Shown in pieces: positions 9,267 to 60,322 of a stretch of DNA of 64,000 nucleotides. Numbering within the stretch: the stretch's first letter is position 1; each line of letters begins with the position of its first letter. The stretch is from Cladocopium goreaui (lineage: Eukaryota; Sar; Dinophyceae; Suessiales; Symbiodiniaceae). The stretch lies in NCBI GenBank assembly GCA_947184155.2, contig CAMXCT020006581.1, positions 252,768 through 316,767 of the forward strand, written 5' to 3'. The translations under genes and the position numbers were made by a program. The notes under the pieces are model-generated. The model worked only from the letters and a program-made list of their open reading frames with translations, was not told where the DNA came from and ran no database searches.

Positions 9267-9384
9267 AGCCAGCAAACCCAGCGGCCCAGCTCTCCATGCA
9301 GTCTACGATCAACGACAACTTAGAGGCTCGAATCGCCTACTTGGAAAACGCCCTGGCATTCCTCATTTCAAGACATCTAAAATT
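9267..9384 (+). CDS. TOP2: TOP2 exon, helical part of TOPRIM before DxD
   Basis: Frame reads LSMQSTINDNLEARIAY then LENALAFLISRHLKL across the join. The donor is GTGAGT at 9385. The exon ends in phase 2 (TT), which pairs with the first base of the next exon. The acceptor is uncertain: CTTCAG at 9266 or ATGCAG at 9301. In topoisomerase II this is where the 'EI..L..ILGL' helix sits, but identity here is weak. Confidence 0.5.

Positions 9385-60322: not shown

What the first reader, a model, noticed from the sequence alone, without database searches (positions are those of the whole stretch)
9267..60322. A topoisomerase II gene scattered as about 30 tiny exons over 51 kb
Family motifs appear in the correct colinear order on one strand, each as an island of 22-118 nt. 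Coding sequence is about 3% of the span. Standard ORF calling finds almost none of it, because nearly every exon is shorter than 30 codons. Phase agreement at successive joins makes chance unlikely.
Basis: partly seen in the sequence, partly recalled or inferred. Interest (0 to 1): 0.8.

Follow-up and report, generated by a model that had tools for sequence, protein, structure and literature searches.

The report
Topoisomerase II gene in tiny exons
A DNA-untangling enzyme of a dinoflagellate alga is encoded in pieces of about 44 letters each, spread over more than 60,000 letters, which is extreme even for these intron-rich algae and raises the question of how the cell finds such tiny pieces.

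Summary
A spliced alignment chains 43 exons on the + strand (1555-62272), encoding residues 501-1119 of a protein identical at 600 of 602 whole-codon residues to P0001, an uninterrupted 1439-aa ORF on a 4.5-kb contig. Score 2653, against 627 (opposite strand) and 598 (reversed). Orthologues at 85% and 70% identity each recover 42 of 43 exons. The gene runs off both window ends.

The 41 internal exons are 15-81 nt (median 44); the 42 introns have median 1.2 kb. Donors are GC 22, GT 17, GA 3; acceptors AG|G in 39 of 42. This is dinoflagellate splicing, but published dinoflagellate mean exons are 99 nt or longer. Spacing is far more regular than random (CV 0.33 against 0.96; 0 of 5000) and fits intron gain near saturation with a minimum exon of about 25-30 nt. 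No introner hallmark was found.

The protein belongs to a divergent, fully supported TOP2 clade, apparently dinoflagellate; 8 of 10 rows with a readable N-terminus carry a hydrophobic leader. Organelle targeting is inferred, not shown.

Corrections: 9267 is not an exon; 36 exons, not about 30, lie in the stated span. Whether the whole genome looks alike could not be tested.

The parts
1555..1601 (+). exon 1 in window (VRGANDKQIQSNTEI; 5' part of gene lies outside)
   Evidence: start set by AG|G acceptor only
2836..2867 (+). exon 2
3425..3450 (+). exon 3 (26 nt)
5745..5764 (+). exon 4 (20 nt)
9556..9605 (+). exon 5, Toprim metal site DQDLDG at 9575-9592
11167..11213 (+). exon 6
12018..12062 (+). 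exon 7
14824..14868 (+). exon 8
18969..19014 (+). exon 9
21024..21064 (+). exon 10
22952..22978 (+). exon 11, GLGTSTRAE
24152..24184 (+). exon 12
25354..25412 (+). exon 13
26369..26423 (+). exon 14 (GA donor)
26688..26740 (+). exon 15
28479..28535 (+). exon 16
29219..29275 (+). exon 17, LKPSQRKVLYW
30645..30672 (+). exon 18
33808..33855 (+). exon 19, SYHHGEQSL
35373..35387 (+). exon 20, smallest (15 nt, VIVNL)
36895..36935 (+). exon 21
37778..37858 (+). exon 22, largest (81 nt); catalytic Tyr codon 37836-37838 (HASARYI)
   Evidence: role of Tyr recalled from yeast Top2
38561..38618 (+). exon 23 (GA donor)
38877..38920 (+). exon 24 (one residue differs from P0001: R to C)
39676..39751 (+). exon 25, VLVNGFIGIGTGW
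42584..42618 (+). exon 26
44224..44272 (+). exon 27
45603..45647 (+). exon 28
47846..47873 (+). exon 29
48582..48619 (+). exon 30, EITELPVK
49658..49696 (+). exon 31
51077..51134 (+). exon 32
52157..52215 (+). exon 33
53303..53365 (+). exon 34
54662..54697 (+). exon 35
56406..56436 (+). exon 36
57119..57150 (+). exon 37
57620..57649 (+). exon 38
58391..58428 (+). exon 39
60245..60287 (+). exon 40 (GA donor; differs from P0001 S to F, as in P0002)
61121..61167 (+). exon 41
61376..61400 (+). exon 42 (25 nt)
62241..62272 (+). exon 43, last in window; end placed by hand with the G-donor rule, gene continues outside

Best explanation
The window holds about 43% of an intact-looking dinoflagellate gene for a type IIA topoisomerase (TOP2) of a divergent, mostly leader-bearing class. 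Shown: 43 tiny exons in frame that together give a protein differing by two substitutions from one known as an uninterrupted ORF. Inferred: the + strand is transcribed as one long pre-mRNA, and the ordinary dinoflagellate cis-spliceosome removes 42 or more introns by G(C/T/A)...AG|G joining. Inferred: because donor and acceptor carry too little information, the machinery recognises each exon as a unit, helped by the GC-rich halo of about 50 nt on each side and the G-rich start of the introns. Inferred: the structure arose by repeated intron gain at AG|G-like sites until few gaps longer than the smallest spliceable exon (about 25-30 nt) were left, which explains the even spacing. Inferred with less confidence: the protein works in an organelle, most likely the plastid.
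For: Spliced alignment 2653 against 627 and 598; 600 of 602 residues identical; no stop in the joined 1859 nt; orthologues P0003, P0004, P0005, P0006 recover 42, 42, 35, 30 of 43 exons, with scores 2263, 1813, 1283, 1211 against 495, 581, 561, 531 on the reversed sequence. Donors GC 22 / GT 17 / GA 3, AG|G 39 of 42, close to the published dinoflagellate make-up. Donor 4.4 bits and acceptor 6.5 bits against 10.5 bits needed; GC 68% in the first 10 intron bases falling to 33% at 75-100, and 59% to 32% on the acceptor side. Exon CV 0.33 against mean 0.96, 0 of 5000; the minimum-exon insertion model reaches the observed regularity only from about 25 nt up. Toprim DQDLDG and catalytic-Tyr motif present.
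Against: P0001's contig is not labelled as RNA; it could be a retrocopy, though that too would derive from spliced mRNA. No reads could be aligned. The smallest observed exons (15 and 20 nt) lie below the fitted minimum, so the limit is soft; the saturation model was fitted after the fact to one gene, uses N|G sites only although 3 of 42 introns precede A, and at minima of 25-30 nt occupies 15.7-16.7 AG|G sites on average against 22 observed. Introns show no shared ends. GC rises again to 37-38% beyond 200 nt, so the halo is relative. The leader was judged by hydropathy only, and one class row with a Met start, P0010, has none.
Confidence: 0.92

Rival explanations
1. The introns are recent introner insertions (intron-making transposons), as described for other dinoflagellates.
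For: Introners are reported in several dinoflagellate genomes; 22 of 46 AG|G sites in the coding sequence carry an intron.
Against: 0 of 42 introns have an exact inverted repeat of 8 or more between their first and last 30 nt; direct repeats at junctions average 3.05 against 2.84 in permutations (366 of 5000 as high), and 1 of 42 has a direct repeat of 8 or more between the end stretches. In the 40 best intron-to-intron matches listed none reaches an intron end; none of 49 repeat stretches overlaps an exon.
Confidence: 0.2
2. Regular exon size reflects preferential splitting of long exons or direct selection on exon size rather than saturation of insertion sites.
For: A model in which the chance of splitting depends on exon length and insertion peaks at the exon centre was proposed (PMC3732091, passages); it would also give even spacing.
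Against: Not separable with one gene; each of the 24 empty AG|G sites lies within 29 nt of an intron, which the minimum-exon model also yields in 38-90% of runs at 25-30 nt.
Confidence: 0.35
3. It is the ordinary nuclear TOP2 of the organism and the N-terminal leader has no targeting role.
For: Core domains are those of eukaryotic TOP2; the SAP domain, a DNA-binding domain (recalled), could serve in the nucleus; class row P0010 starts with Met and has no leader, and P0006 is cut before it.
Against: Separate clade (100/100) with a long stem from 21 hand-picked other TOP2 rows, among them P0060, a leaderless row from an MMETSP transcriptome; 8 of 10 anchor-bearing class rows have an N-terminal hydrophobic window of 1.22 or more, against 0 of 104 other anchor-bearing rows (maximum 1.15).
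Confidence: 0.35
4. A decaying copy (pseudogene) whose exons are no longer used.
For: None beyond the single R to C difference.
Against: No stop or frameshift in 1859 nt over 43 exons, usable splice dinucleotides at all 42 junctions.
Confidence: 0.04

Closest known systems
Intron-rich genes of Suessiales (Symbiodiniaceae, Polarella glacialis)
   Same: G(T/C/A) donors, AG|G acceptors, many introns; mean intron 1401 here, 1408 in P. glacialis CCMP1383
   Different: Mean exon 43 nt here against 98.7-130 in the Suessiales columns of two tables; a Symbiodinium DNMT gene set has median exons of 65 and 68 nt (PMC5890265), still longer than 44
Eukaryotic TOP2 (type IIA topoisomerase)
   Same: GHKL ATPase, Toprim, TOPRIM_C, DNA_topoisoIV core in P0001
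   Different: Divergent clade, hydrophobic N-terminal leader in most readable rows, SAP domain near the C-terminus in 9 of 15 class rows by precomputed Pfam
Chlorarachniophyte Amorphochlora amoebiformis intron-rich genes
   Same: Gained introns (26 in ribosomal protein genes, nine at AG|GN sites) judged not to come from introners (PMC12730881, passages)
   Different: Average exon 101 nt there
Introner elements
   Same: Preference for AG|G-like target sites (recalled for introners)
   Different: No terminal inverted repeats, no clear excess of direct repeats, no shared intron ends here

Membership tests
Eukaryotic TOP2 | Toprim acidic triad: DQDxDG in this window, EGDSA upstream | tested here: met
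   DQDLDG in exon 5; EGDSA at residue 469 of P0001, outside the window
Eukaryotic TOP2 | Winged-helix catalytic tyrosine in an ARYI context | tested here: met
   HASARYI, exon 22; role recalled
Eukaryotic TOP2 | N-terminal GHKL ATPase fused to the same chain | tested here: inconclusive
   Present in P0001 (PF02518, PF00204) but those exons lie outside the window
Dinoflagellate spliceosomal gene | Mixed GT/GC/GA donors with AG|G acceptors | tested here: met
   17/22/3 donors, AG|G 39 of 42 against published values; GA share lower (7% against 17-24% in five of the seven columns)
Dinoflagellate spliceosomal gene | Mean exon length as reported for dinoflagellate genomes (98.7 nt or more) | tested here: not met
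   41 internal exons, mean 43.4, maximum 81; published means 98.7-239.9, and 578.7 in the parasite Amoebophrya ceratii
Introner-derived introns | Inverted repeats of 8-20 nt within 30 nt of intron ends | tested here: not met
   0 of 42; criterion as in PMC10666404
Introner-derived introns | Introns alike over their whole length | tested here: not met
   Only interior matches among the 40 best listed; compared within this gene only
Dinoflagellate plastid-targeted protein | Signal peptide followed by a transit peptide | tested here: inconclusive
   Hydrophobic N-terminal window in 8 of 10 class rows with the anchor; P0001/P0002 weak at 1.22/1.46; P0010 has none, P0006 is cut; no predictor or experiment
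Dinoflagellate genome, organism identity | Marker genes or named record | not testable with these tools
   The genome search did not complete (13 tries); no named sequence identical to it among the rows listed

The most novel reading that the evidence does not exclude
The genome is intron-saturated: introns have filled AG|G-like sites in its genes until exon size is set by the smallest exon that the spliceosome can still join (about 25-30 nt), and exons are found not by their splice sites but by GC-rich islands in a genome with few or no nucleosomes. In addition, dinoflagellates run a private, leader-bearing TOP2 with SAP domains in the plastid in place of, or beside, gyrase.
Probability: 0.25. 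Interest if true: 0.8.

Novelty: new variant of a known kind. Interest (0 to 1): 0.55.

Why it matters
Exon definition in vertebrates is thought to become inefficient below about 50 nt, and intron definition works for short introns (both recalled). Here 30 of 41 internal exons are 50 nt or shorter, introns average 1.4 kb, and donor and acceptor hold 42% and 62% of the bits needed. If the whole genome is like this, it is a natural test of how small exons can get and of what marks them. It also warns that ORF-based and default gene callers would probably miss most of such a gene. The TOP2 clade may tell how peridinin-plastid minicircles are untangled; four searches listed no paper that by title or abstract describes it (one search showed 15 of 172).

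Tried and rejected
Yeast-guided alignment with cheap introns gave 91 exons, most of them false, with null scores of 902 (- strand) and 952 (reversed) against 1123; stricter costs and the close homologue resolved this. Draft exons at 9267-9388, 12600, 13989 and others were dropped because P0001 does not hold them. Of 53 exons, ten outside 1555-62400 were dropped and the last was trimmed by hand. Introner hallmarks: not found. Branch-point or polypyrimidine signal: pyrimidine only 55-60% upstream of acceptors, no single strong motif. G-runs: 17 of 42 introns have G4+ in the first 90 nt, 6 of 42 in the last 90; a mild skew, not a universal signal. Rfam 0 matches, tRNA 0. Pfam on four intronic ORF pieces: nothing. 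Spliced-leader relict: one match at 6 mismatches, none better. A degenerate class pattern found nothing in viral or prokaryote genome contigs, so no second genomic locus could be compared. Leader test: one search had left out class rows P0006 and P0010, which have no leader; one search recounts all 15 class rows and 222 others. Structure prediction was not run.

Full report
Check of the observation. Recalled TOP2 motifs were scored against all six frames: the strong hits (DQDLDG, FLQRFATPLVK, GLGTST, LKPSQRKVLY, YHHGEQSL, QDFVGTNNLNL, GMFGTRLHG, VLVNGFIGIGTGW, PSYRGFQGS, EITELPVK) lie on the + strand in protein order from 9.5 to 48.6 kb; of the 23 motifs, those from the ATPase half gave nothing convincing, as expected if that half lies outside the window. 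A first spliced alignment guided by recalled yeast Top2 was noisy but gave a draft. The draft's 376 residues found P0001 and P0002, 1439 and 1456 aa in one uninterrupted frame on contigs of 4.5 kb (120 of 7965 matches listed). The 74% identity shown there reflects false pieces in the draft.

With P0001 as guide the window gives 43 exons, 1555-62272, P0001 residues 501-1119 and part of 1120. Score 2653 on the + strand, 627 on the - strand, 598 on the reversed sequence. That run listed 53 exons; ten outside 1555-62400 were dropped as chance and the last was trimmed by hand. Of 602 residues in whole codons 600 are identical; by reading, one of the two differences (S to F) agrees with P0002, so only R to C is private. 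The exons follow each other in the protein without a gap and the joined 1859 nt have no stop. This is more than a circular result: the guide protein predicted many exons that the draft did not hold. More distant relatives recover the chain as well: P0003 42, P0004 42, P0005 35, P0006 30 of 43 exons (60% overlap or more), with both edges identical in 39, 35, 26 and 21; scores 2263, 1813, 1283, 1211 against 495, 581, 561, 531 on the reversed sequence. They are 85, 70, 51 and 54% identical to P0001. All 8 misses of P0005 and 9 of the 13 of P0006 lie at 42584 or later; the other four of P0006 are at 1555, 2836, 5745 and 14824.

Anatomy. 41 internal exons: 15-81 nt, median 44, mean 43.4; 14 are multiples of three; 42 introns: 208-4100 nt, median 1203.5, mean 1401; phases 24, 6, 12 (0, 1, 2); exon GC 0.54, intron GC 0.40. 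30 of 41 exons are 50 nt or shorter and 8 are 30 or shorter. Each of the 42 junctions has a reading with G[T/C/A]...AG: GC 22, GT 17, GA 3, and 39 of 42 next exons begin with G. The exact edge often slides by a few bases because both sides share bases around AG|G; the dinucleotide rule chose among equal readings, so these counts partly rest on that rule. The window holds 1859 of about 4320 coding bases of P0001 (43%), so the whole gene may have about 100 exons over about 140 kb; this is an extrapolation.

How it may work. The donor holds 4.4 bits and the acceptor 6.5 bits; 10.5 bits are needed to pick one site per 1.4 kb. The span holds 717 AGG triplets. Extra signal must exist. Two candidates are visible: GC content is high at the exon edges and falls over about 75 nt to 32-33% before rising to 37-38% beyond 200 nt, so each exon sits in a GC-rich island; and the first 40 intron bases are G-rich (33% G, 22% C) with G4+ runs in 17 of 42 introns within 90 nt. 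Neither is shown to act.

How it may have arisen. In the spliced sequence 22 of 46 AG|G sites carry an intron, and all 24 empty ones lie 3-29 nt from an intron. Exon lengths have CV 0.33; random choice among N|G sites, keeping the number at AG|G, gives mean 0.96, and none of 5000 draws has so low a CV, a longest exon of 81 or less, or a shortest exon of 15 or more. A simulation that adds introns at weighted sites but refuses exons under a minimum reaches CV 0.33 or less in 0% of 400 runs at minima of 0-20 nt, 21% at 25, 76% at 28 and 94% at 30; a longest exon of 81 or less in 21, 51 and 73% at 25, 28 and 30. Exons of 15 and 20 nt exist, so the limit is soft, and the model fills 15.7-16.7 AG|G sites at those minima, fewer than the 22 observed. 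I read this as intron gain near saturation, fitted after the fact on one gene. Introner marks are absent. Introns carry repeat families of about 110 nt; none of 49 repeat stretches overlaps an exon.

The protein. P0001 has HATPase_c, DNA_gyraseB, Toprim, TOPRIM_C, DNA_topoisoIV and SAP. Fifteen rows belong to its class (P0001-P0013, P0019, P0020); 9 of the 15 carry the SAP model in the precomputed Pfam column. In a tree of 34 TOP2 rows, the 13 class rows used (P0002, a near-copy, and P0008, a fragment, were left out) form one side of a branch with 100/100 support and a stem of 1.46 changes per column; the 21 other rows were picked by hand; the tool warns that a long haptophyte row (P0204) joins next to the class and that composition differs in several rows. 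Of the 15 class rows 10 hold the RPDMYIG anchor. Of these, 8 (P0001, P0002, P0004, P0005, P0007, P0011, P0012, P0019; P0001 and P0002 are near-copies, P0011 lacks its Met) have a hydrophobic window of 1.22-2.13 ahead of it; P0006 is cut 26 residues before the anchor, and P0010 starts with Met 22 residues before it without such a window. Of 222 other rows held, 104 have the anchor and 15 or more residues before it; none reaches 1.2 (maximum 1.15, median -0.4). P0001 and P0002 have weak leaders. Plastid targeting is inferred from hydropathy and from the known bipartite leaders of dinoflagellate plastid proteins (recalled).

Comparison with the literature. Passages only were read. Average exon length: Prorocentrum cordatum 239.9, Amphidinium gibbosum 184.8, Polarella glacialis 105.7, Symbiodinium natans 106, Durusdinium trenchii 98.7, Cladocopium proliferum 120.4, and the parasite Amoebophrya ceratii 578.7 with almost only GT donors (PMC10666404); 99.8-185 in six assemblies (PMC7557087); Cladocopium goreaui 130.4 and 120.4 in two assemblies, the newer with GT 36.6, GC 43.6, GA 19.8% and AGG 96.1% (PMC9412976). 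DNMT genes of two Symbiodinium species have median exons of 65 and 68 nt (PMC5890265). The splice-site make-up here is thus typical, except for few GA donors; exon size is not. These averages come from whole-gene-set annotation that may miss tiny exons, so the comparison is not like for like. Searches for dinoflagellate with microexon, short exons, topoisomerase II with plastid and gyrase, topoisomerase with minicircle, topoisomerase 2 with transit peptide, and topoisomerase II with paralog listed no paper that by its title or abstract start describes this structure or this TOP2 class (one search showed 15 of 172; passages of PMC5890265, PMC3377699, PMC11302465 and PMC6680887). The library lacks most subscription papers.

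Limits. The key open point is whether the whole genome or only this gene has such exons.

Noticed in passing
512-898: Tandem 123-nt repeat (3.1 copies) whose + frame reads like repeated FAAILADGSVVTWGDPKYGGDSSAVQ units with one stop; resembles RCC1-like repeats (recalled); lies upstream of the first exon in the window.
   Followed up: partly
47524-47642, 47965-48081, 52948-53075, 57696-57797, 59393-59511, 61196-61313, 61659-61771, 63072-63171, 63800-63918: Family of nine copies of about 110 nt in introns and beyond the last exon, three of them matching their own reverse complement: MITE-like.
   Followed up: partly
8416-8541, 10394-10478, 26856-26963, 30970-31067, 38745-38863, 43675-43784, 56144-56242, 56892-57008, 60570-60670: Second family of nine intronic repeats of about 100 nt, none found self-complementary.
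   Followed up: partly
49746-50608: 65-nt tandem repeat, 13 copies, within an intron; another of 78 nt with 6.7 copies at 15360-15878.
   Followed up: no
protein P0204 (Diacronema lutheri): A haptophyte TOP2 on a very long branch with a basic, mitochondrion-like N-terminus joins next to the dinoflagellate class in the tree; may be long-branch attraction or a second organellar TOP2.
   Followed up: no
19900-20442: + strand ORF of 180 aa, proline-rich, no Pfam match, within an intron.
   Followed up: partly
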